From: Trebouxia sp. TZW2008
Lineage: Eukaryota; Chlorophyta; Trebouxiophyceae; Trebouxiales; Trebouxiaceae
DNA: 64,000 bases
Direction: 5' to 3'
Assembly: GCA_002118135.1 (NCBI GenBank)
Contig: BDIU01000008.1
Location: 186,001-250,000 of the forward strand
The notes under the pieces: generated by a model
What the model was told of the DNA's origin: nothing
Databases searched by the model: none
Seen by the model: only the letters and a program-made list of their open reading frames with translations
Made by a program: the position numbers and the translations under genes
Shown: piece by piece, positions 1-64,000 of the stretch
How the letters are laid out: every line of letters begins with the position of its first letter
Position numbering within the stretch: position 1 is the first letter of the stretch

Positions 1-85
1 GTTCAAGCATTCTTGACCAAAGTATCCTGTGACCACGACACTACTGCAGCCAATGGGTTCTGATGGTACTGCTCTTCCTGTGCAG

Positions 86-2510
86 GGCGTTGACTTCTTC
101 TTCAGCAAACGCAGCCATGCACAGCGCTTTCTGGACTTCCTACAAGGTGTGGTGCCCATCAGATACCGCTCTGACAAGCAGCTGGTCAGCCACAACGAGC
201 AGAATGCCTCATACAACTACAAGTACACCTTTTCTGTGGAGATTGTGCCCATCTGCAAGGTATCAACAGTACTTTTTCCGGATGTTGCAACTAACGTCTT
301 GTGAGGGAGGTGAAATCTTGCTCAGAAATCTGCGGTCACAATGCAGTGTCTGGTATCTGACTTTGTTGTGAGCGCAACATATATGTCTCATTCCCAGATT
401 TGTAGCATCCATATACCATGTGCCAAGCTTGCGCTGTACTGCAGCGCCCATGTTGTAGCAGCAAACTATTTTGTCAGCATGGACTGCAATGATAGCAACT
501 TTTTTCTGTGACGCATCTACACCCTAACAGCACCTCTATGCAGCTCAAGGGACAGCACAACTATGCCAATGTGAATGCGTTCAACCACCGATGTGAACAA
601 CCGACTCTGCATCGGTTGTTGACCTCTGCTCTGCTACATTGCAGGATGACTTGATCTTCCTGCCTTCCAAGGTCTCAAGCTCTGTCGGTCACCTGGGTCC
701 TTTGGTATTGTGTACCCGTGCCATGAACACCCTACACTACATTGAGCCAAACACTTTGCGAGGCACTCAAGTTGAGGTGAGTTAGCCTGCAAATATGTAT
801 TTAGCAGTTGACAAGCACTGTCAGAGGCTTTGTTTGTTTGCTTTGCTTGCTTGCTGACTGCACACTTGCAGCACAGTCAAGACATGCTGCTGCGCAGCTC
901 ATCTAGTATGGTTTGCTACACAAACAGGGCGTCTGCATAGACAGCAAAAAAGCTGCAGCTGCATAGCCATCAACCTTATCAGCATTGCTAACAGCAAGCC
1001 AAGCGAAGCAGGTCTGATTGCTGAAAAGAGTGTTGTGTACAGGCACCTGTGTTTTGGAGGCAACCATACAAAGCCCTGCTGAACAGCCGGCATCTAGTAG
1101 AGTACATGATCCTAGACATCGAGCCAACAGGACAGACAGCAGCCAACGGCAAAATTGAGCTGGCAGATGCACAAGTTGCCAGGGTTGCAGACTTAGGCAG
1201 CAATGATACAACGTACCATGTCAGAACCCACTTGGGTCACCTGCTGAACCCTGGGGACACAGCACTGGGGTATGACATGACCAGGGCCAACTTTGTTGAT
1301 GACGAGTTGGAGAACTATGTGCAGAAGGGGCACTCCCTACCTGATGTTGTGCTGGTAAGCATTGACACATGAACTGAACGAATCTTTTAATCACAGGCAG
1401 TGACAAGTGAAGGAGATGTGGATGTTTGCAAAGATCAGTCCTCTGGAAGCGCTTGACTGGGATTGTCTTGATTGAGCGGCCAGCTTGCCTTTGAACCCCT
1501 ACTGTCAGCAATGCGCGCTGTTCAATGTATGCTGGCTGCCCCTTTGTGATCCTTTGTGGCTTCAGCCTCTGGGCAAATACGATGTGCAGCACATCTCTGA
1601 GTGTTTTCTGTGTGCCTGTCCAAATGCTGTGTAGTGTGCACAGCACTGTTTGCTAGGTGTCAACCTTGCTCCAAATTTGTGGAGCAGGGGTCAGATTTGA
1701 AATGACAATGAGGCTGGTGTTAATGTTTGCAGGTACGCAAGAGCTACGAGGAGAGGCGCAGAAAGCGGCAGGGCAAGGGACAGGGTCGCAGCTGGAAGCT
1801 CAAGCGCATGGCGATTGATAGCGATGACACCATGGTGCTGAAGAAGGGGCAACAGGCTCAGGCTGACAAGCGCCAGCAGGACCTGGAGAGGTTCATGCAG
1901 GTGTGCCTTCACATGTCTTCACCTTGTATTGTACTGTCAACGTCTGTTCCTTGCATTTTGATACCTTGTGTTCCAATGCCTTGTGTTTCCTGTTTGAAAC
2001 TGGTTCTCTAAAACTGTATGTCCTGCGTCATCTACTGTTTTGGCCTCCAGTTGGGTACTACCATAGTCAATGTAGATATTGCTGGTGAGGAACTGGCAAG
2101 TACTATGCTGGCTTCTTTCTCAGTGTCTCAAGTCTCAGAAGTTTCATTCCAAGCTTGTGTCTGTTGAGTACACCCTCAACATGGCCTGCTGTTGTGCCAA
2201 ATGGTGTTGCTGTGACTATATTCCAGACAAGCACTGAGTCATTTGCACCTATGCTCATCTCCTGTTGCCATTCCTTCAGGAATTGGAAGAGGATCCTGAG
2301 ATGCGCAGCAGAGTTGCGCTGTATAAGGACCCTGCACACAAGGCGGCGGCAGCGCAGAAGATGGACGCCATGACAGATGGTGATGATGATGAGGATGATC
2401 TGCCTGACATCCCGCTGGAGGAGCTGTTGGATGACATGAACGCACTGCAGCTTGAAGAAGGTGCACAGCACAGCACTGTTAGTGATGAAGACGAAGACAT
2501 GGAGGGATAG
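86..2510 (+). CDS. NMD3: 60S ribosomal export protein NMD3, C-terminal part (5' end outside window)
   Basis: NMD3 is the Crm1-dependent adaptor that carries nascent 60S ribosomal subunits from nucleus to cytoplasm. Five exons are visible: 86-259, 645-776, 1043-1354, 1733-1900 and 2280-2510, all in compatible phase 0, giving 338 residues. Conserved NMD3 strings are seen in order: GVDFFFSKRSHAQRFLDFLQ, then DKQLVSHNEQNASYNYKYTF, FSVEIVPICK, DDLIFLPSKV, LGPLVLCTRAMNTLHYIEP, SRHLVEYMILDIEP and RSYEERRRKRQGKG-like basic residues, ending in an acidic tail (LPDIPLEELLDD). Bases 1-85 read as the end of an intron closing at TGTGCAG. The N-terminal zinc-binding cysteines of the family must lie to the left. 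The last exon's tail is repeated downstream of the stop (see the 2438-2705 repeat). Family assignment is very secure; only the boundaries of the missing 5' exons are unknown. Confidence 0.93.
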
Positions 2511-2705
2511 CTTCTCAATCTGGCGATGGCACCAGCTACACCAGCTGAACGCACTGCAGCTTGAGGAAGCCGCACAGCATAGCAATTTCAGTGATGAAGA
2601 TGAAGAGATGGAAGGATAGCTTCAGAACTGCACATGCACTGCAGCTTCAGAAAGGCGCTCAGCATAGTCCCTGTCAGTGACAAAGACAAGAAAACAGAGG
2701 TTTAG
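2438..2705 (+). repeat. Triple tandem copy of the NMD3 terminal-exon tail
   Basis: The last ~75 bases of the NMD3 coding exon, including the stop codon and the following TAGCTTC, occur three times: 2438-2512 (in the gene), 2547-2619 (about 85% alike, still ending GGATAGCTTC) and about 2633-2705 (more decayed). Spacing is about 109 and 86 bp. The extra copies lie in the 3' UTR or just beyond it. This is the same kind of exon-edge duplication seen at introns elsewhere in the window, here without a splice site. Confidence 0.85.
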
Positions 2706-3525
2706 CTTCGGCAGAGTCTGATGCTATGCTACAAGGTGCAGCAGCAACTCTTTCTGGGACACTGTGCCAGCAAACAAGCTGTCTGCTTTTTGGGCAGTTG
2801 TCACATTATGAGCAGACTTGGTTAGGCATAGGTGAACTGTGAGCTTTCAAAGCCTTTCATGTGTGAGTGTTAGCAGCAGCTGTAGCTCTCTGGAACAGTA
2901 CCAGTGGTACTGCTGACATCGAAGGCAGGCTTGTCTTTCAGGGCACTGCAGCGTGCAAAGATGTCATCACCGCAACAGGTAGACACATCGTCCCAGCCAC
3001 TGTGTTTGCATCTTTGTTTTGGTTCACAACAGCCAGCGGTGCCCTGCTAGTTGCATTGCAGCATTGACATCATCAGCGTTTTGAAATTGAGGCATCTGCA
3101 AAGTGTTTGCTCAAGGGCTGATATGCATTTCTTGGCGCAAGGGCTGCAGCGTTTATGCAACTGGTTCTTTGGCCACTTAATCATTACATTTTCTAATAGG
3201 ACGATATATGTGCAGCAGCATGAATGTCAAACAACAAGCTGCAACAAGACTAGCACTTCAAGGCCGAGCTGCTGAATGAATGTTGCGTGTTTGTTGACTG
3301 GCAAGCGCATCTTATTGCCCCACTTCCTTGATTTCTATTCTCTGTACTATTGCAGTGTTTCTGCAGACCACATTCTGTCAGACACTCAGAGCCCAATTGC
3401 CCATCAGTAGAAGGGAATCTGGCCAATCATTTCGTGCGCCATTGCTTGAATGGCCGTCGGTTCGGTCAAACCCGAGCTTCAAAGCCTGAGAAGTGCACCT
3501 GGTGCCGCGCTGTGTGCGCGCGACG
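2706..3525. other. Intergenic region between NMD3 and the translocator
   Basis: I see no gene here. The stretch carries the NMD3 3' UTR remains and, from about 3420, a CpG-richer segment that should hold the promoter and 5' UTR of the translocator gene. No TATA box stands out. ORFs in it are short and have no recognisable content. Confidence 0.5.
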
Positions 3526-7366: not shown

Positions 7367-9578
7367 ATGAATTTGGAAAGCCAGAACCTGTTTGCAGCTC
7401 TTGACACCAAAAAGAAAAAGAAAATAAAGTCTTCAAAGGATCACGACAAGAAGAAAAAGCAACCAGACAAAGCCGAAAGAGCAGCTGAGCTAGACAGGGC
7501 TGTCTTCTCTCAGCCTGCCCCAACCACTACAAACTGGGCCGACGAGGACGAGTTTGATGAGTTTGACCAGGACCTTGGACCGTTGCCGGAAAGCTGGGCT
7601 CAGGTCGGCAGGACAGCCCCATACTTACTGAATCCCGGCAATCGCTGTCAGCAGTGAGCTGTCTAGACAGCAAAGCTTGCATGTGCAGGCACACAATAGT
7701 CACGCAGCAGCAGCGGAGGAGGAGACTGCAGAAAGCGACGAGGTGCTTGTCAGCTGTTGTTTTGACAGGCTCCCCACAAACTTGCTCTCTCACTGCAGCA
7801 CCGGAGTGACACTTCATGTCTACAGGAAGTAGACCAGCAAGCCATTGAGGAGGCACTTGGGATTGAGCTAGGCAAAGATGATGAGGAGGAGGAGGAAGAG
7901 GAAGAGCATGAAGGTGAGATCCATCATAGCAGACAGCTGCCTCACATCAAGGCAAAGCTTGTAATGGTCGTGTGGTTGCATCATGCTGTGTGTGAATGCA
8001 GATGAGCGCTCTGAACAAGAAGAGCGAGCTACAACTAGTGCTGATGATGAGGCGAGCAAGAAAAATGCAACTGAGCAGCAGAAGCAGCTCTCCAAAAAGG
8101 TGTGCACCACTTGCTTGCACAAGCAAACAGCGCTGTCTTGTATTTCATGTCTTTCATCACCACGTGGAGGGTGATTACTTAGTCATAGTGCACTACAATG
8201 GCGCAGGCTCAATGCAATGCATTTTCATGTTGTCACATTTTGTTACAGCCAGAGTAACAAGCTGCAAGTGTTGTGACAGAGTGTGACACAGCCGTCGGCA
8301 GTTCCAACCTCTAGCACTTGCAGTCAAGCAGGGTCTTTGCCCGAGGTGTAAATGCAGTCAAGCAGCGTTCACATGCATGCTCTACTTGTACAAATGCTTC
8401 ACAAGATCAAAAGAAGAAGAAGCTGGATCAGTCAAATGTCAACTGCATCATGCCTGTTGACAGGAGCAAAAGAAGAAGGAGCTTGATGAGTTGAATGCCA
8501 TGTTGGCGGAGATGGGTGTGGCGCCCAAAGAATCTGATGCTGAAGGTGATGGCACAGCACCAGCTGGCAAGAAGAAAAAGAAGAAAGACAAAGCAAACAA
8601 GGACTCTGCTCCTGCTGTGAATGGTCACGGTGCTGCGCCTACAGAAGAGCCTGCAAAGCCTGCTGAGGACACCACAGATGGGGAACAGCAAGAGCCTATA
8701 GAGGTAAGTGCTTGCAAGTATCAGCTTCTTTTCTGGCAAAAGCGTGTGCAGTTCTGTTGGCTATAGAGCATACCAAGCTGCTCACACCACTTCTGCATAT
8801 CCTGCTCTGCATAGCTCTGAAGCTTACTTCTCACCATTGCTGATTGTCCTGTCATGCCTCTGAACTGCTGTTCAGAGACATGGTTGCCATTGTGTCAGAA
8901 AATGGCTTTTGCGCAATGCTACACTGCTGGACCTGGTCTTGGTGTTGCTTTCATGCACAACATCTTGTAAGCAGATCATCTTGACAGCTGTGTCAGCTTG
9001 CACTGCATGTGTGCAATCCATGCATGTCAAAGTTATGCAGTGCCAGGCGAATTGTGTGGATCTGCACAGTTAGTCAACATGATCTTTTGGCTACTCCTTT
9101 GTCGCATGGTTTGCAGCCTTTACCCTTAGATTCTGGTAACGCAGGGGGGGTTCAAGAAGGTGCCACCCAAGGTGAAGAAGCCAGCAGCCAAGAAGACTTC
9201 TGCAGCAATTGCAGCAGCTGCTGCCGCTGAGGCAAAGGCACGAGCTAGCAAAAAGGGCAAAACAAAGGACAAGTCCACATTCAACCAGGTAACTTGGTGC
9301 CATCACCACAATTGCCTGGCACTGTGTCAGCTCTCGTGCGCATGCTATGCATCTGTAACAGACTAGGCTTTGTTCTGGTGAGTGTGCGCATCAGCTCAAG
9401 TCACAGACACACCAGAAGTGTTGTCTTATCTGATGGACTGATTCGCAGCTATGCGCGATCTAACCTGAGCATGTGAATTGAGCTGATACGCACACTCATT
9501 AGGACAGAGCCCAGTCTGTTACAGCATCAGAAAGGTTGCTCGCATCTCTGCTTTCTTGGCATCTTGCAGCTGCTTTAA
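7367..9578 (+). CDS. Lysine/glutamate-rich conserved-looking protein, function unknown
   Basis: I do not recognise this family. Seven exons fit with consistent phase: 7367-7603, 7689-7742, 7826-7913, 8002-8099, 8464-8703, 9145-9288 and a tiny terminal exon 9570-9578, giving 289 residues. Visible features are a basic N-terminal KKKKKIKSS block followed by an acidic run (WADEDEFDEFDQDLGPLPESW), an EQQAIEEALGIEL-like helix after an alanine/glutamate stretch, a poly-Glu run, KELDELNAMLAEMGV (likely coiled coil or helix) and a C-terminal Lys/Ala tail (GGFKKVPPKVKKPAAKK). There is no signal peptide or membrane segment. The highly charged composition suggests a nuclear or nucleolar protein, but that is inference. 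The last exon codes only two residues before TAA; the true end could be the read-through of exon 6 instead. Confidence 0.65.
8404..8440 (+). repeat. Acceptor-side echo of exon 5 of the lysine-rich gene
   Basis: GATCAAAAGAAGAAGAAGCT and the bases after it match the first ~36 bases of the real exon at 8464 (GAGCAAAAGAAGAAGGAGCT) with few changes. It lies 60 bp upstream, within the intron. Confidence 0.7.
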
Positions 9579-11170: not shown

Positions 11171-14100
11171 ATGCAGCAACCGCATCTTCACACGCCACAG
11201 CTGGCCGTGTCCCCGAACCAGCATCACGGCCGGTCTGCGGCCCGGTTCGACTGCCCGATGCCAGCGTTGGGGCGGTCGACTGTAACTGCTGTTCGGCATC
11301 TTTGGCCCGAACCAGGCCAAAGCGCAGCGCCTGCGTCGTCAGGTACGCTGCCGCTGCCGCTGTAGTCGCACCACACTCAGTCTGCCTGTCTAGGCCTGCT
11401 GGCCCACCGCTGTTGAGGGGTGAGCTCTGACGCAGTGAACCTGCCTGCCTGTTGCTCACACTTTCAGTTCGTGCTGTACGTCTGCACTTCGTTGCACCGC
11501 ACCGGCGTACGCTACCTGCATCATCCTGTGCAGTGCAAAGACAGCAGCACTGATGCTGAGTCAGACATCTGATGCAGCCCAAGGCGCTGATGGCTTAAAA
11601 GTATTGACAGCTTAGATTTCACAATGTGTAACTGCAGCTAAATAGATAAGCTTGGCAAGGGCTGTGCTCTGCCTGAATGGTCTTCTGACACTCTTGGCAG
11701 CCCATCTAAAGTCTGTTCAGATGGCGACTCAGCCTGTTCTTCACATTGCGCCATCGCATTGCCGGCAGTGCTGGCACCAGTACACATGTACTGAGCAGAT
11801 TACGCTGTGTCTGCAAGCTGATCCGATGACAGTGCATCTGCAGGTGCTGTGCCGTACCTTGCACCAGCCGCTCACTTCTCAGCTGCAAACGACCCGCACT
11901 TACAGCAATGGCATTTGCAGACACACAGCCCTCCTACAACGCTGATCAAGACAGGTCTGCTTCTCAGCGTACACTGACTACCATAAGACCATGGCAATTG
12001 CAGCCGTCTGGTGCTTGTGCAAGTGGCTGTTTGTGTACTTCTGGTGCCTGTTGTGACAACATTGTGACATGCAGTCACATCACCATGTTAACAGGGCATG
12101 TGGCATAGTGAAGCTTGCCTTGAAGGCGATTGAACAAAGCATCCATCTGTACTCTGCTGTCAAACAGAGAGAGTGTTTCTGCGAATCTGAGTTGGCCTGA
12201 TCCCGCCAAGGCAATCTAGACCTAAGCCGATCAAGCTGTTTATCCGCTCACATGCATGTCAATCAAATTTAATGACCCACTTAGCTTGGTGCCAAGCGCT
12301 CATTAAGCCCAAGCAGATATGTCATACACATTGTCTGCTGTAGTAATTAGCTTAGTTACACACTGACCGTAGGTGACACCAAGAGCGACACCAGCAACAC
12401 AAGCATGGACTCCACAGACACAGCGACCATGCGCAACCAAGATGCCGGACACCCTGTTGGCACTCACAGCAACCCCATCCTGTCCTCAGTGCTGTCCAAG
12501 CCCAGTTGGAATATGAGTCCCTCACAAGCACCAGCACAAACAGGTCAGCCAATGCTGCTCTAGGCTGCAGAGGCTATTTTGATTGTGATGAAACACTACA
12601 TGCCACCTCCATGTGTCCAGTCAATGCACAGGGGGACTGCCTAACTGCATTTGTCATCAAGCTGTGCTGTACACAGAGAATTACCATGGGATTGAAGCAT
12701 TACAACAGCCACTGTAAGCAAAGCTTGTAGGGAAACATATACAATCTGTGCTGTGAACAAGACATGGTTTGTGTGTTGCTGGCTGCAGCATCTCAGAATG
12801 GGTCCATCTCACATCCCTTGTCATCCAGCATCATCAATTCGCCTCACCAGGGCCACCCAGGCAGCCACCCCACTTATCTGCAGCTGGACCGCTCCTCTTC
12901 AGGCCACTACTATCAGGTCAGCAGTTCAAAATCAGCATTGCGTCAGATATATACATGCATTCCAGCCTGTAGCTTGACACCACTATTACATTGAAGCTGT
13001 GTAGCCATGCAAGCCCTGACCATGGCTTGTGTTATGGGTTGCATATGGCCTTTGGATATTGTTATAGCCGCTTTCACTCAACCAAGCTCTGTGTTCAGCA
13101 CTGTGGACACCTGTCTCTGCTGCCATGCATAATGCAAACACACCATGGTCTCATCAACTAAGCACATGGTGTAAGTGTGCTTTTACACTTTGCTTGTGCC
13201 AAAAGCCTGTGGCCTCAATTCTGTACTCTACTTGATGCTCAGGCCCAATCAAATGCCACACAGGCAACGGCCAGAAGAGCAGCTGTCACATACTGGTGAG
13301 ACATACACATGTACAATTGCTCACAAAGCAGCATGCTTGCTGCAGGTATCACAACAGCCAACCATGAACATTGCTGCAAAACAGGCGCCTGCCCCAGTCT
13401 TTACTCGCAGCTCCTTTGTGGGGGCCAATGTGGGCATACTCTGCCTTATGAGGCAGCTTGTGTGTTGCAGGCATCAGAACATCCACCAATGAGCAACATG
13501 ACCCTTTGCCCCACCCCCAACCTGACCCGCAGCTCTCCTGCGAGACTTGCGCATGCATGCTCTGCCTGATCATCTAAACTGTGTGCTGCAGGTATCACAA
13601 CAGCCATTCATAAGCATAATTATCTTTGTGCCAGCAGCCTAGCGCCTGTGCTTGCTGTAAGTATCGCAGCAGCCACCCATGAGCAACATAACCTTTGTGC
13701 CAACAGCCCTGGGTCCTGCCCCCAACCTGACCTGGACCTCCTCTGTGGGAAACCACCTTACATGAGCGTAACCCCTCACCACTCAGCCTGCCTGCTATAG
13801 GTGTCGCAGCAGCCACCCATGAGCAACATGACTTTTGTGCCAACAGCCCAGGGTCCTGCCACGAATCTGACCCGGACCTCCTCTATGGGAACCTCCCATG
13901 CAGAGGCTGCAGCAGGCCATAAGGCAGACAGCCCACCTCCCACCATCGAGCAAGCTGCTGCTGCCACAGCTGCAACTGTCAACCAGGTACTGTACCAGAG
14001 ACTTTGAAACATGCCACCTTACATGTTGACATGGCACAGCCTGTGCCATTGAAGTGCCATTTGAGCATGTCAAAGGCCACAAGGCAGACAGCCCAACTCT

Positions 14101-17100
14101 CACAATCCAGTAAGCTGCTGCTGCTACAGCTGCTGCTGTCAACCAAGTATTGTAGCATACATTGTTAAACATGCCACCGTACATGATGACATGGCACAGC
14201 CTGTGCCATTGAAGTGTCACTCAAGCATGTAAAAGGCCACAAGGCAGACAGCCTACACTCCTCAATCTAGCGAGCACGCTGCTGCTGCCACAGCTGCCGC
14301 TGTTAATCAGGTTTGTATCATGCACTTCAAAACATGCCACCTTACATGATATGGCACAGCCTGATGAAATGCCACTTAAGGATATAGAAGGCCACAAGGC
14401 AGACAGCCTACCTTCTCAATCTTGCGAGTTGCTGCTGCCACAGCTGCTGCTGTCAATCAGGTGCGTTGCTCATATCAGATCCGTCTTTACACAGACTTTA
14501 GCATCATCTGAATCACGTATGCTGGTCACTTCATATCTGCCTGCTGTCATGTGCGTCAGATGAGATTGGAGAGCTGACACATGCAGTCACAGCTTAGCGC
14601 TGCATGTCAGGAAGCATGCTAGCTAGATGCGTATGTCTCAGCACAACAACTGTGTGGAGTCATCTTGCCGGTTCTTGTTGCCGCATCTCCAGAATAGGGC
14701 AACTGCATCCTGATCCAAAACCAGACTCTGATGATATGTCAGGAAACGTACAAGCTGACTAAATGATGTGTTACAACTATGCCGGTGGGGCGCAGGCAGC
14801 AGCACATTCAAGGAGCAGGCGCCGCGCTGGAAGCGTGGAGCGCGGCATCAGTCATGGCAGAGTTGAGAAGGCGCGCTCCTCCCGATTCAGGGGTGTCACC
14901 AAGCACAGGCGCAGTGGCAGGTCCTGTTGCTCATGAGTTTGCTGGATCATCATGCCACCATCCATTTCGTGTCCTACCTGCTAATTGGCATCCCATCTGC
15001 ATCTGCCATCTTCCGGCCATGTGTTGCCTTGTCAGCTTGTTGTCTTGTACGGGCAGCTGCTGTATGGCCACCTAGCTGTGTTTGCCATCCTGTTTGCCAT
15101 CAGTCACAAGTCAGCCGCCATGCTGTGTACCATCTGTCAATTGGCATCCTGTATGTCATTTGCCACAAGGCATCTGCTATTCTGTGCGCCATGCACCATC
15201 TGCCGTTTGTACTTCGCTGCCTGGCATCTGACATCTGCCATCCTGTGTGCCATTTGCCAACTTACGCAAACTACTGCCATCTGTCATGCAATCTGGAATT
15301 TGTTGCTGCTGCATCAAAAGCTGTTGCTCTGCTGCTTTGGACCAGCAAGCTTCTGCAGCCTGGATGCCCTCTGGCTTTCTCATATTCTGTGAACAAGGCA
15401 GCACTCAATCTCAGATAGGCGTTTTTGCAAAAAAAATGTCAGTAGAGCTTTGAACAGCTTGCTGACAACGCCCTGTGTGTCCCTCTACATGCATGTGTTG
15501 ATTTCAAGCTGTTCAAGACTCTGCTGACAATTGCACGAAGGTCATGCTGAGTGCGCACAACAGCAGGCACATCTAAGAAGCTTCTGCTTGATAATGGTCT
15601 GCTCCTGCTCACTAGACCTTCGTCAAGGATCCTGTGGACAGGAGCTAAACAGCCTGCAGCCAAATGGACCGAGCAGGTGTGTGCGACGCTGCTTTGTGAC
15701 AGTGGTTGCAATGACCAATCAGTCTTGTGTCAACTATCTGAAGTACAGTCTGGAATACAGTGAGGCAAGAACTGCGCTATATAGGCCATTGGCAACAGCT
15801 GCCATGGCAGAGCTGCAAGCCAAATACATGCACATTTGGACACATGTGCTGAGGCGTAGAGCGTGCGCGATTCATGTCACGGGACATCAACAAACACACA
15901 CATCTTTCTGGTATTTATTGCAGGTGGGAGGCCTACATCTGAGCGAAAGAGCTAGGCCGGCAGGTATACCGTAAGGGCTGCAAAACTCAACAGCAAGGTG
16001 CATACTGCAGGTGGGAAGGCCATATCTGGGTGATAACACAAAGGAGGCAAGCATACCTGGCGGCTATGAGCATGAGAACCATGCTGCTGAAGCCAACAAC
16101 GTGCATGCACTCAAGTGAAGATGGCTTTGGGGTGTTTTGCAGGTGGGAAGCTCACATCTGGGTGAAAGAGCTTGGCCGGCAGGTATATCTAGGGGGCTAT
16201 GAGCATGAGGAGCATGCTGCTGAGGCCTATGATGTGGCCGCCCTCAAGTGCAAGGGCCACAGAGTCAAGACCAACTTTGCTGCTGACAGGTTTGCAGTTG
16301 CTCAAGCACTCTGTCAAACTGTATGAGTTGAGTGGGTGGGTCAAGGGTTGTCATGCCCCTGGTGTCAGCTTCTTCATCCTTTCTCCATGCTGCCAGAGTC
16401 TGCTCAAGCACTGTTCAGGTCTGCTTGACCATACGTTTGACAGCACTTTACGTGCTCCTGAACCATCAGGCAGCTTTCTCATGCGTTCCTCATGCTGTCA
16501 GGTCTACTCAAGCACTGATTCAGTCCACATGACTGTGTGCTAAACATCATGGGTGAATGTGCTCCCAGTGGTAGCTTGGTCATACTTTTTCTATGCTGTC
16601 AGATGCTGCTCAAGCACTGCTTCAGTCTGCATGACCATATGCTTAACAGCACAGTTGATGTGCTCCTGATAGCAGTGTCTCCACGCATTGCATTCTGCTG
16701 TCTGCACACTGCTGCGCTGATAGCCGGGTTCCATTTGTGTGCTGCCATGCTGCCATGTGCTGCCACCGGCACAGCTGCCATGCTCGTGAGAGCTCTTCAA
16801 GTTTGACTCAAGTGACTGATGCTAGCTACAGTCTGTATGGTACAAGACTCTGCAAGTTGCATTGTGCCTGCCAAGTGCAAGGGGCATGAGCTATAGTACT
16901 GTGTCACTGAAGATGGCATTGCTGGGTGTGGTGTGTCACAGGTACAGTGACCTGACAGAGTGCATGGACAGCATCAGTCTAGAGGAGTTGATCATGGCAG
17001 TACGGCGCCAGAGCCAAGGCTTCTCCAGGGGTACCTCCACCTACAGGGGGGTCACCCATCACCCTAGCGGTAGGGTTCATGACTTGTGTGTTGCACATGA

Positions 17101-37900: not shown

Positions 37901-37901
37901 C

Positions 37902-37955
<54 letters not shown>

Positions 37956-40900: not shown

Positions 40901-42337
40901 CATGTCGTGTGTGCGGGCCAGCCAACCCGGTCTGCAGACTGGCATTGGGTTTGTGTCAGACATTCGGCGCATGAATGTGGCCATCACACGAGCCAAGCGG
41001 GCTCTCTGGATTTTGGGTAGCGCTGCTACTCTGCAGGTCAACCTTCATGCACAACTCCTGCACATCACTTCCAGTGCACTGGACCTGGCCAAGCATGCCT
41101 GACTTGCTCGACCTCATTAGTTGCATGTGTCAGACTAATCAGGCACGTGAATGTGGCTCCCACCCAAGCTAAGCGGGCTCTCCGGATCTTGGGCAGTGCT
41201 GCTACTCTGCAGGTCAAAATTGATGCACAAATTGTACACTTCAGTTCCTATGAAGTCGCATAAGTCAAGCGCACCTGACTTGCTCAAGTTGCATGTGCAC
41301 GTATGTACATCTCGCTACCCAGCAAATGATGACACCGCCTCTCACAGTGCTTGCAAAGTGGCTTTCAGACAATACCTGATCGAAGACGACCTGCCAACCG
41401 TGACTGCGCTCAGTGCAAGAGGTTGGCATGTAAGGTGAAGTTCTCACAGTCTATGCTGTCTGAGGGTCTGAGATTATGTTGACTGCGGCTGCAGGCCAGC
41501 CCAGTATGGAAGGCGCTGTTGGATGATGCAGAAGAGCGGGGCTTCATTGTGCGCAACGCCAGCGCAGGCGAGCTCTTCCCAAACATGACAGACCTGCATC
41601 TCATGATGGCCAACAGACTCAACCCCTCCCCTGACCCCCACCCACCACCCCAGCCCCCTGCGCATCAGAGGAGTGCTGATATCAAGTCTGACCCCAGGAC
41701 TGACCCCCAGGGCCCCCCTCACAGGGCAGATGCTGAGATCAGGACTGATCCTAGGACTGCTCCTAGGGCACCTCAAGGAGGTGGGCGTGGGGTCGGGCAC
41801 CCCAGCGGCCCCTCAGGGATGGCCCCTCTGGGTGGCAGGGGTACTCCCCAGGGGGTCCCTTTCAACACCAGCCATGCGCCACAACAGCCACAACATAGAG
41901 GGCAAGGCGCTCATGCCATGCATGGGCGGCCGCATCAGGCAATGACGCGCGATGATGCAGGATCACAGCAGCTGACGCCTGCACAGCTGGCCATTCAACA
42001 AGGGAAGCTTCAACAGCAGCTTGAGCGGCAGCAGCAGCAGCCAGGGCAGCAGCAGCAGCAGGCAGGGCCGCTGCAGCATGTAGCGCAGTCACAGATGGCA
42101 GGTTCAGGGAATCAGCCACGCCAACTTCCTGGCCACAGCATACAGTCTGAAGGCATGCAGGGCGTTCAGCACAGCCAATGGGACTCACTACACCATGGCC
42201 CCAGAGACCCTAGGCAGCCAGCAGCTTCTGGAGCACCCATAGAAGCTGCAGCAAGTGCAAGCCAGGCACAGAGGCCTAGTGATAATCACAGTCAGCATTT
42301 GGCCCAGAGTCAGCGTCTACATCCACACCAGCGTCAA

Positions 42338-42369
<32 letters not shown>

Positions 42370-46713: not shown

Positions 46714-46767
<54 letters not shown>

Positions 46768-52322: not shown

Positions 52323-55300
52323 ATGGCAGGACTGTCCCTGCTTCGGCAGTCTCGCCGCTTGTATGTCTCGGCAAACAGCAGTGCAGCGTGGATAGAAAGC
52401 GGACTGAACTTCAAGTGCACGCAGTGTGGAAAATGCTGCACTGGAGGCCCTGAAAGAGCTGTATATGTACGTACTCACTGCAGTCGCTGACGTTCAACAG
52501 CCTGCTTACATAGCCTGAGACACCTGCATGCTTACTTTGTAGGTGTCTGAGCAAGAAGCAAATGCGATTGCAGGCAGCTTAGGGCTTGATAGTGACCAGT
52601 TTGCAGATCAGTATCTAAAGGTACTTTGTTGGTGTGCTAATGGCAAGACACTGCCTGCTGTGCCAATCAAGCTGTTGCGTGAAATCCCGGATGGGCTCGA
52701 TGCCTCAAAGCTGACCTATGACAAATCACTTGTTTGTACGCAGGCTGGTTCTGTAGGTCCCCGGCTATCTCTAAAGAAGAACAGCACAAACACAGCTTGC
52801 GTTTTTCTCATAGATGGCAAATGCTCTGTTTACCAGCACAGACCCACTCAGGTCAGTGCAAATACGTCAAGACAGACGTCATGCACGGTTGCAAATTAAT
52901 GCAATGCCAGTCTCAGTGACATGCACACCTCATGCAAAAGCTTGAGCAACAGGCTGAGACGCCTTGAGTTGGATGCCGTTGACTGTATTGCATCTTGCGT
53001 ACATTCTACCTTTGTGTGCATCCTACAGTGTCGCACATATCCATTCTGGCCAGAACCTCTCACTTCCCGCTATGATTGGGAAGCTGAAGCCCTACGATGC
53101 GAGGGCATTCAGATCAGATCATCCTTGCCAATCACTCAGCACAGGCAGTACTGCAATGTGGCTGCGCAAGTTGCAGAGTCGGGTACACAGAGCTGCGAGT
53201 TGCTGCTTGCCTATGTTGTGCCTTCATGCACATCAGTGCCTGTTTCATGTGCATGGCACTCTACTCCACGACATATGTAATGACAGACTGTGTCACATGG
53301 CCAAGCTGCCTGAGTTGCAACCACGAGCCAAATGTCTGCATGGGAAGCTGATCACAGGCAGCGGGTTGCAATCAAACAGATAGCACAATGTACCAGATAC
53401 GTACCTTGCTGTGCCTGCTGAGTCTGCCTAGCATATGTCTAGAAAAAAATGAATGAAATTGAGTATGAGATAGGACATAATGCAAATCAGCAATGCCCAC
53501 ATATGCACTGCAGAGGATAAGCAGAAGCGCGCTAGAGAAGCAGCACAGGAGGACCCTGCAGAAGCGTATGCTGGCAGAGCTGCAACTGCTGCATCATCAG
53601 AAACCTCTCCTTTATCAGTAGATGATGCAGCAGCAACACTAGCAGATGACGCACCCATTCCAGTAGAAACTATAAAGCGTCAGCTGGTATTGGAGGAGAT
53701 CTCCAGAAGCGGTGAGATGGGTGGCACCACTCACAGGCATGCTCTCACTCATAGAGTTCCGCACGAATGCTGCACACTTAGTACATGGACCAAACACACA
53801 TTATGGCAGTGCACTGTTGACCTGACAAGCCTGAACGGATCCACCTGCCACAATGATAATGTCACCCCAAGTTGCACGACAACTGGTAATATACATGACT
53901 GGTGCCAAACGTCAATAGCAAGAACACTTGGCGATTTAGCGTGTCAGCAGCATGAGTTGAGGATGCTCAAAATGTCACGAAATTTCTCACACCGTATCCA
54001 ATCTGTGCATTGCCAGCATTGTGCCCTGCATGAGGCAGTCAGCTTTTGAGCTGTTGTAATCGTCTGTCACACAAATCTCAAACTCTGCATTGCAAGCGCA
54101 GTGACATGGAGGAGCTGCTCACATCAGTGTCCCCACAGCTGGTTGATGAGTTTGCTGAAGACTTCTTTGCCAACCGAGGCCGTGAGCTGCTACACGACAG
54201 CAAAAGGTGGCGAGTGCTCAATACATGGGTGGGCGAACCTAAGGAATACTCCAGGTTTGTAGTACAGTGTCCTTAGACTCACAGCTTGTACGTTACTAAG
54301 ATGGCGTCATTAGCTGCGTTGCATTAAGCTTGGATGTACTCAGATCAGCATGAGGAGCCATACAGGCTGCAGCCTTCAATACATCACCAAGCTCACAATT
54401 GTCTGCTGCAACACAGAGAGACTGGTCTTGACACATATTCTGCACATGCAAGGCCGACCTTGCTTGCTGCCTGTCGTTTTGCAGGCTTGTAGATTATGAC
54501 TTAAACAGGATGCAGCCAGAAATGATCAGCACCAGCTTTATCAAGTTGTTGACGTATCGTCAGCACATACCAACAACGAGACAGCTGAGACAGGGTGACC
54601 CCAACAGCTGCGTGAACATCTGAGTTCATGCGCTTACTCTGTTGTCTCTGCTCATAATTCAGGCACCACGTAGGCTGCAGGCAAAGCCAGCCTTAGCTGC
54701 TGCATTGCATGCAAGACATGCCTGGCATAGCTGACACCAATTCCATTTTGCACTGGGCATACGTTGACCACAGCATACCAGCTGCTTATGAGCAGTGAGC
54801 CAATCGCATGCACAGCATGCAATGCACTGCGTTGCATCTGCTCTGATCTTGCAACATGCCCGGCGTGATGCACACTGAGCTTGCAAGAGCTTCATGCTCA
54901 AGCTGTGTCCAGGCTTTGACCACGATCAGGCAAGAACTGAATGATGGACCATGTGCATGCAGAAGCTTGGTGCTCAAGCCATGTCCAGACTATGCCCAAA
55001 CAGAGGAACAACTCAGACCTCAGCCTGACGGCAGCATGACTGTATGGCATGATAAGCTATGCCAGCCAGCCCACAAAGACATGTGCTTGTTGTGTGATGC
55101 TAAGATTCTTATGAGGCCCTGCATGATGTACAGTGTGCTTGCAGGAGCTTGGTGCTCAAGTCCTGTCCAGGCTATGCCCAAACAGAGGTGCAACTGAGCC
55201 CTCAGCCTGATGGTAGCATGAGGGTGCGGCATGATAAGCTATGTTAGCCAGTCCACAAGGCCACCGCTTTTGTTAAGCTGAGATTCTCATAAGGCCCTAC

Positions 55301-57813
55301 ATGATGTACATTGTGCTTGCAGGAGCTTGGTGCTCAAGTCGTGTCCAGGATACGCCCAGACAGAGGTGCAGTTGAGGCAGCACGCTGATGGCAGCACAAC
55401 TGTACGGCATGATAAGGTTTGCCAGCCGGCCCATAAAGCCATATGCCTGGCTTTCGCTCTGCAAGCCATGAGTCAAAAGCAGATGCACAGCGCTGCAGCC
55501 TCCTCACTGCAAAAGCCCATCAGTGTGCATGACGCTGGCTCCCTGCACTCCAGCACCGAGCTAGCTGTTGCTGTTATAGGTGAGGTTTGCTGCATCTGCA
55601 ATCAGCATCAGTCCGTTCAGCTGATACACAAGTTAGCGCACGTCCCGATGCTGTAAGTGGCCTGCAGTCACTGATGCAAGCTTTATCACAGTGCAAGGAT
55701 TGCCTGGTAAGAGGAGTAGGCAGCTTAACTGCAAAGCTTGGGGGCAGTTTTTGCTAAACTGCGTCGCGTCCCACATTGTGCATGTGAGGTTGATAAACGC
55801 TCCAAAAGTCGTCCCTACCTGCAAACAAGCTGAAAGTGTGTGCGTGTAGCATGCCGGCGGTGCTGCAGCATTCAATGTGATGTGTGCTGTGTGCTGTGTG
55901 TCCGTGTCATGCATGCCATCAACAAAAGCCTGCATTGGCAAGAGTTCTTGGCATTCCTGTCACGCAGGTTCCATCAACAATGTGCATGCATGTGGCCAGA
56001 ACAAGTGCCTAACTCTGTTCTCATGCACTTCCGCACGATTTTGCACAGGCAGACCTTTCAAATTTACAAGAGCTGTCAGGCAAATCAAGTTGACGAACCC
56101 ATTTCTGCATTCACAAACAAGCTGGTGTTGAGCAGGTGCTGGTGCGTGTGCTTTGCCCATGGCCGTCAGGCATCACTTCCCAAAGGCTGCCATTGATGCT
56201 GTTGACATTGATGCTGAGGCCTTGGACCTGGGTCAATGCTTCTTTGACGCAAAGGAAGACTCTCACCTGATGATGCACAATGAAGATGGGGTCAACTTTC
56301 TTACAAGACAGGGTGTCTTATCACAGGTGAACAGTTTTGTGACTACAAATTGCAACAAGTGCATCGACAAGGCAATCTCCAATGAGAAGCTGGCTTGTGA
56401 TGTGGCGCACACATATGGTCTGGTCAGCAGTCCCCATCATCATTGCATGCAAGGCATGCTTGCTGTCCCCAGCACATCCTGATGAAACTGTTTTTTGGCA
56501 ATTCATGTGCATGAGCTATGTGGACTGTTTTACTGTCCACATTGTGGCAACTGAGCTATTGACTGAAATGCCTGCATGGTTCTGATTTGACACGCAGCAA
56601 TTTGCCTGTGAACCCAGCACGCTAAAAAGCTGTTGCGGAGGCACAGCTTACCACTCACTGCAGCTGCACAGCACGCGTAACAACAGCAAGCCAGGAGCAA
56701 GTAGTGATGTGTAGGCGGGTCCTGTTGCACAACAGATCATTCCTTTGAGCACCCTTATCACCTGAGCTGATGGACATTGTGTTTGCTACAGTTCGACATC
56801 ATCATGCTGGATGTGGCAGCACCAGATCCAGATGGAGATCCAGGCACCCTCAGTTCTTTGCCTGCTCAGTTCCTCAGCAAGAGTTTCATTGAAGAAGGAC
56901 TTTGCCGGCGTCTCAGGCAGGTCTATTTGCAGTAGTCCTTACGTCCCATCAAGTTGCCCTGCAGTACTGTTTTTGCCCAATACTGACATACACAGCAGCT
57001 TCAGCCTTGCAGTGAGGAAGGATGTTGCACCGCTTGCTTGTGCGCATGCCTGCACCAGCGAGTGTCAGGGTCATGAAAACAAGCTCATGGCCTGAGGCAC
57101 ATCATGGACGAGCACAGCAGGGCTCAGGTCTGCAAGGTGCATTATCTTTGCGCACATGACTGAAACCTAGCAGTGGTTTTCTGCGCTGAGTTGCACCAAG
57201 TGAGTTGCACCAAGGGCAGGGTCTTCTTGAGAAGCAAAGCTGTGAGTACCACTTGCATCAGATTTGCTGTGGTCTGCGCACTTGGACAGGCAGTCCATAT
57301 ACCGTGATTGCTTGAGCAACAGTGTCACTTGCAGCAAGGCCCTGGCGCATTGAGCCGTTACATGTATCTATTGATGGTATAGGTAACATCCGTTTATGCC
57401 GTTAGGCTAGAATTTCTGAACTGTATGATGTTCTGTTACATGAGTACTTCTGATGTCATGCTTGCAGGCCAGGAGGGGTAGCAGCAGTGAACATATTGGG
57501 AGGCATGCCAGCTCTGAAAAACGCTGTCGCCAAGCTGCAACCTCATTTCCAGCATCTGCACGCGCTGCACACTCCAGAATTTGGCGTCGTGTTTGGCAGA
57601 GCTGCTCTGCGTGGTGGCAATGATCCCCAAAAACACACAGCCTTGTGGAGATTGACAGCAGCTGCTGCAACGCTGAAACCATTGTCTGTCTTGTGTGATG
57701 AAGTGCTGGGTGAACAGCTGGAACAGTGGGCTGTCAATGATGAGCTGCATGATGTGTTGAAGGCTCACTTTGGCTATGGCTGGTTTACAGCACAGGAGTT
57801 GATGAAAGCTTAG
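52323..57813 (+). CDS. Fused UPF0153/YkgJ cysteine-cluster and METTL13-like methyltransferase protein
   Basis: Ten exons: 52323-52466, 52543-52620, 52744-52851, 53029-53144, 53491-53736, 54102-54254, 55323-55579, 56136-56326, 56792-56916, 57468-57813. They give 587 residues in one frame, provided the introns after 53144, 53736 and 56916 are GC-AG. The N-terminal half has the metal-chelating CTQCGKCCTG (CxxCxxCC) cluster, CVFLIDGKCSVYQHRPTQ and CRTYPFWPE, as in the zinc/iron-chelating UPF0153 family. The C-terminal half is a spermidine-synthase-fold SAM methyltransferase like the C-terminal domain of METTL13: SCPGYAQTEVQL, AVIGAGACALPMAV (motif I), HHFPKAAIDAVDID, FDIIMLDVAAPDP, PGGVAAVNILGG, YGWFTAQELMKA. 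METTL13 methylates eEF1A in animals; the substrate here is unknown. If the GC-AG junctions are wrong these could be two adjacent genes split near 53740-54100. Confidence 0.75.
54485..54590 (+). repeat. Possible old echo of the methyltransferase exon at 55323
   Basis: GCTTGTAGATTATGACTTAA ... AACAGGATGCAGCCAGAAATG follows a TTTTGCAG acceptor and vaguely resembles the exon start. It is also an open frame of about 46 codons in the right phase, so it may instead be an alternative exon. Confidence 0.35.
54886..55262 (+). repeat. Three acceptor-side echoes of the methyltransferase exon at 55323
   Basis: AGCTTGGTGCTCAAGTCCTG-type copies begin at 54888, 54964 and 55146. The intact exon has the same string at 55324; steps are 76, 182 and 178 bp. 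The younger two include the intron part ATGAGGCCCTGCATGATGTA, the acceptor TTGCAG and ~120 bp of exon. Stops and frameshifts (for example TGTTAGCCAG for TGCCAGCC) disable them. Confidence 0.93.
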
Positions 57814-58722: not shown

Positions 58723-61700
58723 ATGGCTTTCGCATTGACTTCATCGCCAGCCTTGGCCACACAGTTGAACAAGGGCGTGAGCAAGCGCTTCACCGCCACT
58801 CGGGTACCATCATCTCCCCATCTGCACAGACCTAATCAAGCCGATCGCGGCTGTTTGTTGCATCCGAGCGAGCCGTATGAAGCATCTGAGTTGACTGAAG
58901 CTCATGACATAGTCTGATGCGTGTTTTAGGCAGCGAGCTTGTGTTCACGCGTTTGCATGCTTCGATGCCATCGGATAACCTGGGCAAAGACGTCGGGCTA
59001 GATGCAGACCCGTAGTCTGCCTTACTTACTCAGCATTTGCTCGGTCTGCAGGCTGCGAGGCCAATCCGCGCTGGTTCCCGCCAGGTTGTCCGTGCCTCCG
59101 GCGATGACTGGTATGGCCCAAACAGGCCCAAGTTTTTGGTGAGTTCCCAGCATGCGGCAGCCCTTGTCCACTTTCTATGATCACACAAACGCTCAACCCT
59201 GTCCGCACTTGCAGGGCCCATTTTCAGAGGGTGTCACTCCCGAGTACCTACAGGGAGAGTTCGCTGGAGGTGAGTGCACGCCTCTGCGCTCGCTCTGATC
59301 TATTCGTGTGGTTCCTTCCGCAACTGACAATGTTACTCTTTGTCCTGCAGACTACGGCTGGGACACAGCCGGTCTATCAGCTGATCCCCAGACCTTCGCC
59401 AGGTAAGCGCGTTGAGGTGCAGAGAGTCGACATTGCACTGCATGCCGCATTGCGCATTAGTCTGACGGTGCTGGTGCGCGCGATCCTGCAGGTACAGGAC
59501 CGTTGAGGTCATCCACGCCAGGTGGGCCATGCTTGGTGCCCTCGGCATCTTGTTCCCTGAGGTCCTGGAGAAGTACGCAGGCATCGAGTTCGGAGTAAGC
59601 ACCTGTTTCTCGCCTGCTTCTGAGCGAATATTTGACAGCATGATATGTTAGCAGTGCGTGCAAGCTGTCCTGGCAAGTCAACCTACCAAATGCTACTGTC
59701 TGGCAGTAAGATGCTTTGCCATCAAGTCTGAGCAGCAACCTTGTGTGTTCTTGCATTCCCCAACACGCAGCACTACAGCGACTGGTACCGTAGCCTCTGC
59801 AATCAGCTTGCTTAATATGGCTACATGTTTGTCAAAGATCTCATCAGCCAATGCTGCTGTCTGCAGAGATGCTTCGCCCTCAATACAGGCTGCTAGGAAC
59901 AAGCTCTGTATGATGATACATGCATGCGCATATCATTCTACTGTCTGTCAAACATCACAGCGAGCAGGCAATGCTGGTGTGCAGGAGCCAGTGTGGTTCA
60001 AGGCTGGTGCCCAGATCTTCACAGGTGAGGGTATCAAATACCTGGGAGCCTTCACCATCCCAGCCTTCAGCTCCAACATCATCCTCACCCTAGGTGTTGA
60101 GGTATGCCACAAGCCATCATACTGATCTGCCTTAACTGAGAGCTTATTGCACAGCTATTGCTGATGACTCTGCTGCTGCTAAGTCACCACGCTACACTTC
60201 CCTCATCACCCCAGCCTTCAGCTTGAAATCATCCTCATCCTAGTTTAGGTAGGTCACATTTCATCACACAGATATGCTGACTGTCAGCCAGCATATCTGC
60301 TTGAAAGCGCACTTTGGCTAGCCTGGGAACAATCAAGCGCGCTATCAGCACATTGCACTGCTGCATTCTCACAAACAGCAGGAACAACAGCAAATCTGTT
60401 GCAACAGATGCATGTGATTACGCATCCAATAAGAATGGAAGACAAAGTGCATCTGCGCAGGTGCAGCTGCTGGACTTGGCAGAGGCCCACTGCACAGTCC
60501 TCCTTTATGGCTTTATCCATCATTGCCATGCAAGTCACATGTGTACATGCTGCTGCTGCATCATAATCAAATCAAGCTGGCCTGGCAAGACAGGACTTCA
60601 GCATGCACCTGCGCTTGGAACGGCAGCGTCATAAACCTGATCATCATCATTCTGCTGAAGCCAGTGCGATGCCCATGTAGGTGCTGCTGTTGGCTCTGGC
60701 CTGGCAAGACAGGATTTGAGCCACACACACCTAGCATCTTCATGTGCTATGTGTGTGTGGCTTATGAGCGTCATCAGCATCATTCTGCTGCAATGAGTGG
60801 AATCCCTGCACAGGTGCTGCTGCTGGGACTGGCTGAGGCGTACTGCACAGTCTGCATCACTCACTCACTATTGCCATGCAAATGACAGTCCTATGTGCTG
60901 CAGTGAGTGCGTTGCATGGTAGATGTAAACATCCAATGCGCGTGCAGGTGCTGCTGTTGGGTCTGGCTGAAGCCTACCGTGCAAACGGTGAGGGTCCAGG
61001 CGTAGAGGGCCTGGATGACCTGTACCCCGGCGGTCCCTTTGACCCCCTCAATTTGGCTGACGACCCAGACTCCTTCGCTGAGCTGCGTGTCAAGGAGATC
61101 AAGAATGGACGGTGAGCATATGACTTTGCCTCGACTTTGATCTGTGCATGCGCTGCATTCCCAAAAGCCTTATGCACCATCATGAGAGCTAGTATACTGA
61201 ATACTACTGGCAAACGTGTGCAGCTGTTGCATTGGCAGGTGTATCAGGTGCTGCTTGTAACTGCCTGCAAGCGTCTGCTGCAGATGCGAAGTGTCCACTG
61301 TGCCACATGCTGTCTCAATCATTCTACCAATGCTGCTTCGGTGGCAACAGCATGCTGACTTTGTTGTGTGCTGTGTGCAGGTTGGCTATGTTCGCCAACT
61401 TTGGCTTCTTCGTCCAGGTGGGCCCTGCTGGCTTCTGCCTGAGCTGCCTCCATCTTGTGCACTATATCAACTAATTTGCGCCTTATGCATCCTGCTTTTT
61501 CCGCAATGCATCATGCTGGTCCAGCACTGCATGAATCACCATTCTATTACTTCGAGCACCTTGATAACTTGATTGTGGGTGCAACATATTTTGCATGTTC
61601 AACAGTCAGTCCCCCAGGCATGCGTCACATAGCTGTGGCTCACAGTATTTGTATCAGCTGCTAGGCTCAACATCGCTTCGACACTGGTCACAACTGCAGT

Positions 61701-63774: not shown

Positions 63775-63825
63775 CTGCAACACAAGCACACTGCTGAGCA
63801 TGCACAATGCATGCAGTGATTAATG

Positions 63826-63976
63826 TACGGCATGATGACGCTGCCAGGGCAAATGTGAGACCAGCTACATATGCTTGCATCGCAATGTTGTCATCCTATG
63901 TGCTGTATTACCACATTGTGTACTGCATGGCAATGTTGTCAAGGCAAAGGTGAAAGCAGCTGCATATGCCTGCACT
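63826..63976 (-). repeat. Two acceptor-side echoes of the CcdA exon at 63774
   Basis: The + strand string CATGGTGACGCCGCCAGGGC ... CATATGCCTGCAA at 63731-63780 (start of the exon on the minus strand) recurs at 63831-63881 and about 63926-63976. Steps are ~100 and ~95 bp. Both keep a CTGCA/TTGCA acceptor-like end. They lie upstream in the gene, obeying the same rule as on the + strand. Confidence 0.9.
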
Positions 63977-64000
63977 TCAAGCAAGGTCGTCGACACTGAT

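What the first reader, a model, noticed from the sequence alone, without database searches (positions are those of the whole stretch)
1..64000. Genome-wide 'exon echoes': one-edge tandem copies of exons laddered into introns
Direct observation: about twenty exon edges in nine of ten genes, on both strands, are repeated as tandem units of ~75-180 bp that span an exon-intron border. They obey one rule: copies of an exon's 5' edge lie only upstream, copies of its 3' edge only downstream, and the intact exon is the one next to the rest of the coding sequence. Identity falls with distance in the clearest ladders. Inference: recurrent tandem duplication across splice borders is enlarging introns in this lineage, with splicing keeping one copy and the rest decaying. 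Tandem duplication is a known route to intron gain (AGGT-containing segments), but I know of no description of such dense one-sided ladders in a green alga.
Basis: partly seen in the sequence, partly recalled or inferred. Interest (0 to 1): 0.92.

Follow-up and report, generated by a model that had tools for sequence, protein, structure and literature searches.

The report
Decayed local copies beside exons
The DNA of a lichen-type green alga is full of old, short, nearby copies of itself; the half-decayed exon copies in its introns are the part of that process that is easiest to see, not a process aimed at exons.

Summary
The repeats are real. In 324 kb (window plus 260 kb of seven other contigs) there are 332 local direct pairs, 7 inverted, none in shuffles, covering 14.3% of bases (summed). 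About 20 exon edges in the window have a copy in the adjoining intron.

The interpretation needs correcting. Coverage between genes (12.2%) is close to that of introns (14.9%) and exons (16.0%), and borders are no hotspot (56 of 465 spanned; 47.3 +- 6.8 expected). The one-sided rule holds (45 of 47), but in 39 of 45 cases the other side would have hit an exon. Identity falling with distance is not general (12 falls, 10 rises). About half the pairs are spaced (95 of 197).

Echoes decay as if neutral: 0.158 from their exon against 0.309 between noncoding copies (medians). Four orthologues lack one echo-coded insert.

Unexpected: young copies are almost absent, so duplication was once frequent and then slowed. 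I file this as a dense, apparently episodic case of close direct duplication. Exons are predicted, not RNA-based.

The parts
2280..2709 (+). exon 2280-2460 with two 3'-edge echoes downstream, 2546-2623 and 2636-2709
   Evidence: 87.2% and 74.3% identity to 2437-2514
8398..8703 (+). exon 8464-8703 with a short 5'-edge echo upstream, 8398-8441
   Evidence: 79.5% over 44 bp; relation listed
13328..14462 (+). exon 13801-13986 with 5'-edge copies upstream (13328-13740) and 3'-edge copies downstream (array 13914-14462, period 160, 3.5 copies)
   Evidence: an internal copy was also called as an exon (14248-14310)
15909..16289 (+). AP2-domain exon 16143-16289 with two upstream 5'-edge echoes, 15909-15979 and 16006-16117
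   Evidence: 78.9% and 75.2%
17508..17851 (+). AP2-domain exon 17664-17851 with upstream 5'-edge echo 17508-17612; the echo has lost its AG
   Evidence: 88.6% over 105 bp; echo nearer to its own exon (0.897) than to the paralogue's (0.838)
20310..20608 (+). exon 20310-20453 with 3'-edge echo 20508-20608
   Evidence: 79.2%
22613..23051 (+). exon 22613-22796 with 3'-edge echo 22963-23051
   Evidence: 71.0% (listing data)
25772..26366 (+). second AP2 gene, exon 25772-25959 with 3'-edge echoes at 26092-26135, 26228-26285 and 26329-26366
   Evidence: 90.9%, 87.9% and 84.2%
26716..27002 (+). exon 26716-26863 with 3'-edge echo 26962-27002
31744..32177 (+). exon 31981-32177 with upstream echo 31744-31877 (called as an exon at 31824-31898)
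   Evidence: 73.2% to 31900-32037; segment present once in P0121 and P0122
36073..36601 (+). helicase exon 36244-36453 with a 5'-edge echo upstream (36073-36160) and a 3'-edge echo downstream (36510-36601)
   Evidence: 81.8% and 70.2%
37296..37621 (+). helicase exon 37296-37477 with 3'-edge echo 37539-37621
   Evidence: 79.5%
39055..39398 (+). helicase exon 39055-39184 with 3'-edge echo 39258-39398
   Evidence: 82.3% over 141 bp; alignment
39740..40333 (+). helicase exon 39740-39919 with 3'-edge echoes that the gene finder called as exons 40019-40174 and 40277-40333
   Evidence: 69.4%; the echo-coded insert is absent from four orthologues
40848..41285 (+). helicase exon 40848-41036 with a downstream copy of its 3' edge at 41126-41285
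   Evidence: 75.6% over 160 columns; exon aligned to orthologues
45284..45633 (-). minus-strand exon 45428-45633 with its 3'-edge echo at 45284-45365 (downstream in transcription)
   Evidence: 72.0%, relation
54858..55449 (+). array of about 178-bp units, 2.8 copies, in the gene at 53.3-57.8 kb; exon calls inside it are unsure
59985..60277 (+). chlorophyll-binding-protein-like gene (name recalled from the sequence), exon 59985-60101 with 3'-edge echo 60200-60277
   Evidence: 76.8%
60811..61111 (+). exon 60948-61111 of the same gene with a short 5'-edge echo upstream, 60811-60843

Best explanation
The exon echoes are the exon-overlapping part of a genome-wide mutational process that made short direct copies (offsets mostly 40-240 bp) of whatever stretch lay nearby, some adjacent and about half separated by a spacer. 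Shown here: the copies are local, direct, spread over genes and intergenic DNA, and not concentrated at splice borders; the echo drifts at about the rate of noncoding DNA while the coding copy is held. What follows from geometry plus purifying selection: copies of a 5' edge survive upstream and of a 3' edge downstream, and duplications inside exons survive only in frame. Inferred: the copies were made by re-copying of nearby template during repair of breaks or by backward slippage of replication, and the great majority were made before a sharp slowdown roughly 0.1 neutral substitutions per site ago. Function: none needed; echoes are neutral debris that lengthens introns and leaves decoy splice signals.
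For: 332 direct against 7 inverted pairs, 0.0 in shuffles. Coverage 12.2% intergenic, 14.9% intron, 16.0% exon; borders spanned 56 of 465 against 47.3 +- 6.8. Median JC distance 0.158 (codon positions 1+2, 41 exon-echo pairs) against 0.309 (86 noncoding pairs), ratio 1.96; exon side 0.158 and intron side 0.347 in 20 relations. Exon-exon offsets a multiple of 3 in 15 of 16, against 28 of 92 noncoding and 32 of 110 mixed pairs. Mirror copy would hit an exon in 39 of 45. Four orthologues lack the echo-coded insert of the helicase. Splice dinucleotides kept in 17 of 22 and 18 of 23, about what 14% divergence per base leaves by chance (hand reckoning, 33 of 45). Few young copies: noncoding pairs under p = 0.15, 4 of 86; 0 of 120 segments at offsets 100-200 with 95% identity.
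Against: Exon-versus-noncoding pairs are 1.6 times expectation (82 against 50.6); I explain this by slower loss of recognisability but did not model it. In-frame stops in echoes are fewer than simulated (6 against 11.7 +- 3.3, P = 0.056), so some echoes may be or have been coding. In several well-preserved relations the strict test found no intron homology (13 of 21). The spacer resembles an outer flank in only 20 of 73 pairs, which a plain tandem model does not predict. Breakpoints were not analysed, so the copying mechanism is inference. All exon calls are predicted.
Confidence: 0.74

Rival explanations
1. One reading: tandem duplication favoured at splice borders, still running, steadily enlarging introns.
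For: About 20 window edges carry copies; exon-versus-noncoding pairs exceed the shift expectation, 82 against 50.6; introns with duplicates are longer.
Against: Borders spanned 56 of 465 against 47.3 +- 6.8, p = 0.109; intergenic coverage 12.2%. Young copies almost absent.
Confidence: 0.1
2. The copies are alternative or mutually exclusive exons kept by selection.
For: Splice dinucleotides kept in 35 of 45; somewhat few stops (6 against 11.7 simulated, P = 0.056).
Against: Most are copies of one edge, not whole exons (80 edge rows, 17 whole-exon rows). Codon-position divergence is 0.16, 0.144, 0.232, and positions 1+2 diverge at half the noncoding pair distance, as for a neutral copy. Four orthologues lack the helicase echoes.
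Confidence: 0.08
3. Assembly artefact: false duplicates, or true young copies collapsed so that only old ones are seen.
For: No reads were available and the assembly method is unknown; near-identical short repeats are a known weakness of assemblies (recalled).
Against: Copies differ mostly by 10-35%, so they are not false duplicates. Collapse should cut both classes at the same high identity, yet noncoding pairs are already scarce above 85% (9 of 92, most of them short matches) while mixed exon pairs are common up to 90% (24 of 110 between 85 and 90%). No N in 324 kb.
Confidence: 0.07
4. Copies are born already diverged, through error-prone synthesis, so that the missing young class is an illusion and the process is still running.
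For: Fits the lack of near-identical copies.
Against: Would not by itself give the twofold ratio between noncoding and exon-echo distances, nor the exon-side and intron-side ratio within one copy.
Confidence: 0.04

Closest known systems
Short local or close direct duplications of eukaryotic genomes (Thomas et al. 'doublets'; Achaz et al. 2001; Messer and Arndt 2007; known here only as cited in PMC2671141)
   Same: Direct orientation, short distance, tens to hundreds of bases, no border or gene specificity
   Different: Here the density is high (14.3% of 324 kb) and young copies are nearly missing; I had no comparison genome, so 'high' rests on no measured baseline
Repair-mediated duplications, Pace et al. 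2009 (PMC2671141, abstract and passages)
   Same: Proximal duplications of similar length (mean 162, median 147, max 619 bp there), including partial exons; rate reported as decreasing through primate evolution
   Different: That study excluded copies within 50 bp and reports an opposite-orientation case; here direct pairs outnumber inverted 332 to 7. Breakpoint signatures not tested here
Small tandem duplications by CST and Pol alpha-primase at breaks (PMC8355091, passages); patch-mediated duplications in rice (Vaughn and Bennetzen 2014, cited there, not seen)
   Same: Small direct duplications made at DNA breaks with overhangs; a plausible route
   Different: Shown in cells at induced breaks; nothing here tests that pathway, and half the pairs here have a spacer
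Intron gain by tandem genomic duplication (PMC3443670, passages; Gao and Lynch 2009 and Hellsten et al. 2011 seen as references only)
   Same: Duplicated genomic segments carrying splice signals; splicing can spare the coding sequence
   Different: There a new intron arises from a duplicated exonic segment; here existing introns hold the copies and no new intron was shown
Introners (PMC9860276, listing and start of abstract only)
   Same: Lineage-wide change of intron content
   Different: Introners are dispersed copies of one element; here dispersed similarity is nearly absent (11 far pairs in the window, 10 of them between the two AP2 gene regions)

Membership tests
close direct / short local duplications | direct orientation and short distance | tested here: met
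   332 direct, 7 inverted
close direct / short local duplications | occurs irrespective of gene structure | tested here: met
   coverage 12.2 / 14.9 / 16.0% intergenic / intron / exon; no border excess; modest 1.6-fold excess of exon-noncoding pairs
close direct / short local duplications | strict tandem adjacency | tested here: inconclusive
   102 adjacent or overlapping, 95 spaced
repair-mediated duplications | microhomology, filler or deletion at breakpoints | not tested
   copies too diverged; no analysis run
intron gain by tandem genomic duplication | a new intron at a site where relatives have none | not tested
   no DNA of relatives available
introners | dispersed similar copies across the genome | tested here: not met
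   per block, 0-7 pairs at 600-5000 bp and 0-11 beyond 5 kb within the same block; matches between blocks not searched
mutually exclusive exon duplication | whole exon copied with both splice sites and coding constraint on both copies | tested here: not met
   80 edge rows against 17 whole-exon rows; neutral-like divergence. Individual exceptions not excluded
minisatellites | many homogeneous head-to-tail copies | tested here: not met
   exon-border arrays in the window have 1.8-3.5 copies at 77-82% matches

The most novel reading that the evidence does not exclude
This algal lineage passed through a long episode in which short stretches of DNA were copied beside themselves at a very high rate; the rate then fell several-fold or more about 0.1 neutral substitutions per site ago, leaving about one seventh of the genome in recognisable copies and many introns lined with exon remnants that still carry splice signals. 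That would be a datable change in a replication or repair trait of a whole lineage, read from one genome.
Probability: 0.42. Interest if true: 0.68.

Novelty: new variant of a known kind. Interest (0 to 1): 0.5.

Why it matters
With one copy pinned by coding selection and the other free, each echo is a built-in clock for neutral decay that needs no second genome. The copies explain a share of intron length in these algae, mislead gene predictors (mine called echoes as exons in at least three places in one window region: 31824-31898, 40019-40174 and 40277-40333), leave intact decoy splice sites in most echoes (35 of 45), and point to a past change of duplication rate that could be dated across Trebouxia species.

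Tried and rejected
A splice-border hotspot: not supported by the placement test. Collapse of young copies in assembly: unlikely, because the two classes thin out at different identities. Gross loss of flap endonucleases or MutS: XPG_I and MutS_V exons are present; finer defects untested. A repeat-directed mutator (RIP-like): C>T plus G>A are 224 of 648 exon-to-echo changes, noncoding ti/tv is 1.17, not extreme. Copying from mature mRNA: 3' echoes keep the intron's GT in 18 of 23 and intron-side homology is found. Comparison algal DNA in viral contigs: 9 pattern matches, none a relative, so no baseline from another alga. Gene finder: first runs failed to start, the next degenerated; models used are. 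A strict local-alignment test of intron homology was weaker than the gapped one; both are reported. The second spacer test is partly circular, because the aligner had already stopped at those ends; one search is the fairer one (20 of 73). A borderless 'young echo without intron homology' idea (copies ending exactly at the border) was dropped, though 4 of 24 well-preserved relations still lack detectable intron homology. Genes with echoes were not counted, breakpoints not analysed, opposite-side cases on other contigs not resolved one by one.
Full report
WHAT GENOME. The window lies in a genome of 68.5 Mb in 527 contigs. A predicted AP2 protein piece is 95% identical to a Trebouxia sp. C0005 protein and a helicase 67%, so this is a Trebouxia or a close relative; I cannot name the species. 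Published Trebouxia genomes are 63-74 Mb, about 50% GC, with 9-16% repeats (PMC11523091, passages; PMC12712428, passages). In the main texts 'tandem' occurs 0 and 0 times, 'intron' 0 and 1 times.

IS IT REAL. I compared the 64-kb window and 260 kb from seven other contigs with themselves. Local direct pairs (offset 20-1200, score 26 or more): 332; inverted: 7; mean of five dinucleotide shuffles: 0.0. An ungapped diagonal scan also gave 0.0 in shuffles at every threshold shown. By a stricter scan, coverage is 11.2% of the window and 6.0-34.2% of the other blocks, 46,253 of 324,000 bases when summed by hand. The window is ordinary for this genome.

GENE MODELS. With no annotation at hand I wrote and trained a simple gene finder on these sequences: 385 exons, 355 introns, median intron 360 bp, acceptor consensus TGCAG|G. 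It merges neighbouring genes, misses some exons (one helicase exon seen in orthologues) and reads some echoes as exons. All exon-based counts carry that error.

IS IT ABOUT EXON BORDERS. Coverage is 12.2% between genes, 14.9% in introns, 16.0% in exons. Of 465 borders of exons scoring 8 or more, 56 are spanned by a copy; 1000 circular shifts give 47.3 +- 6.8 (p = 0.109); pairs touching a border are 73 of 332 against 64.1 +- 11.4. Among 218 primary pairs, those with one exon-bearing and one noncoding copy number 82 (32 + 50) against 50.6 expected, and wholly noncoding pairs 92 against 119.5. A pair with one conserved copy stays recognisable longer, which should give such an excess; I did not model its size, so a mild real preference is not excluded.

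THE ONE-SIDED RULE. In the cleaned set 45 of 47 relations obey. In the full set 66 edge rows obey and 14 do not, 12 of these in four complex arrays. For the 45, a mirror-image copy at the same spacing would have landed in a predicted exon in 39; only 6 were free to lie on the other side, and 2 opposite cases were seen (P = 0.145). So the rule is what geometry and selection leave, and says little about mechanism.

WHAT HAPPENS TO THE ECHOES. If an echo is neutral and its exon is held, an exon-echo pair should diverge half as fast as two noncoding copies. Median Jukes-Cantor distance is 0.158 for codon positions 1+2 of 41 exon-echo pairs (0.203 with all positions) and 0.309 for 86 noncoding pairs. 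Beyond the border the intron side is homologous in 28 of 45 relations and in 20 of the 24 whose exon side is best preserved; in those 20 the mean distances are 0.158 exon side and 0.347 intron side. A stricter local test found intron homology in 21 of 43, and in 8 of 21 of the better preserved. In-frame stops: 6 seen in 931 codons, 11.7 +- 3.3 simulated (P = 0.056): compatible with neutrality, but some coding echoes are possible. Splice dinucleotides remain in 17 of 22 acceptor echoes and 18 of 23 donor echoes, close to what neutral decay leaves.

DIRECT CASES. At 39740-40333 the gene finder called one good exon and two weak ones. Aligned with orthologues from Trebouxia C0005, C0004, C0009 and Myrmecia, the weak ones form an insert that all four lack, and the flanking exons join directly: they are 3'-edge echoes. 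At 31824-31898 a segment that I predicted twice occurs once in the two orthologues that cover it (by eye). In the AP2 gene the echo 17508-17612 resembles its own exon (0.897) more than the paralogue's (0.838), so it arose after the two AP2 genes split; an older echo (16006-16117) is about equally far from both (0.748, 0.736).

OUTSIDE THE SAMPLE. Profile searches of the whole genome, capped lists read by eye, show the same ladders: MutS_V on C344 (2-32, 2-43, 2-37 upstream of the fullest exon 2-74, and 40-73 downstream) and on C33 (2-33 upstream of 2-79); AAA on C328; kinase on C73 and C130; XPG_I on C57 with three copies of 1-47, which of them is coding being unknown. The DEAD and ABC searches showed no clear ladder; possible kinesin cases on C275 and C193 were not followed.

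TANDEM OR SPACED. Of 197 pairs with at least 40 aligned bases and offset up to 400, 102 are adjacent or overlapping and 95 are separated by 20 bp or more. The spacer resembles an outer flank in 20 of 73. Tandem duplication followed by partial deletion, or interrupted re-copying of a nearby template during break repair, could both give this; proximal repair-mediated duplications in human are of similar length (median 147 bp; PMC2671141, passages). Pairs with both copies in exons have offsets divisible by 3 in 15 of 16.

LADDERS. Where one border has several copies on the allowed side (13 ladders), identity falls in 12 steps and rises in 10. Repeated events at one site are real; an orderly age gradient is not general.

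MISSING YOUNG COPIES. Noncoding pairs in p-distance bins of 0.05 from zero: 0, 3, 1, 9, 29, 28, 13, then 3 from 0.35 to 0.45; exon-echo pairs: 0, 3, 10, 13, 9, 5, 1, 0. From the 0.20-0.25 bin I reckon by hand about 68 noncoding pairs below 0.15 at a constant birth rate, against 4 seen. The diagonal scan finds 7 of 252 segments at 95% identity or more, 3 of them at least 40 bp long, and none of 120 at offsets 100-200. Rapid loss of young copies cannot produce this at a steady birth rate, because survival can only fall with age. Collapse in assembly should cut both classes at one identity, which is not what is seen. I read it as a past episode that slowed; comparison with other species' DNA is needed.

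LITERATURE. Ten searches were made. Those that joined tandem or exon duplication with introns and algae or Trebouxia gave 0 papers, 113 papers of which 15 were listed, and 3 papers; no listed title or abstract start describes such copies in green algae. Only listings were seen for these, and the library lacks most subscription journals.

Noticed in passing
window 14796-18847 and 23939-26863: Two neighbouring genes each encoding two AP2-type domains; exons 78-88% alike between them, echoes placed differently in each.
   Followed up: partly
block C208 (contig C208, 100001-130000; L029-L031): Repeat coverage of 34.2%, far above the other blocks, with 6 nearby inverted pairs where the others have 0 or 1.
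   Followed up: no
window 63226-63341 and 46715-46767: Simple repeats: TGAG, 29 copies at 97%; GCT, 17.7 perfect copies inside a predicted minus-strand exon.
   Followed up: no
window 34391-34507 and 36742-36864: The only direct repeat of the window at 600-5000 bp distance: 2351 bp apart, 71.5% over 123 columns.
   Followed up: no
all blocks: Predicted introns end in a strong TGCAG|G signal with only a weak T-rich stretch upstream.
   Followed up: no
L-less place G000:C57:178778-179254: Three neighbouring matches to the same part (1-48) of the XPG_I profile, spaced about 160 bp.
   Followed up: no
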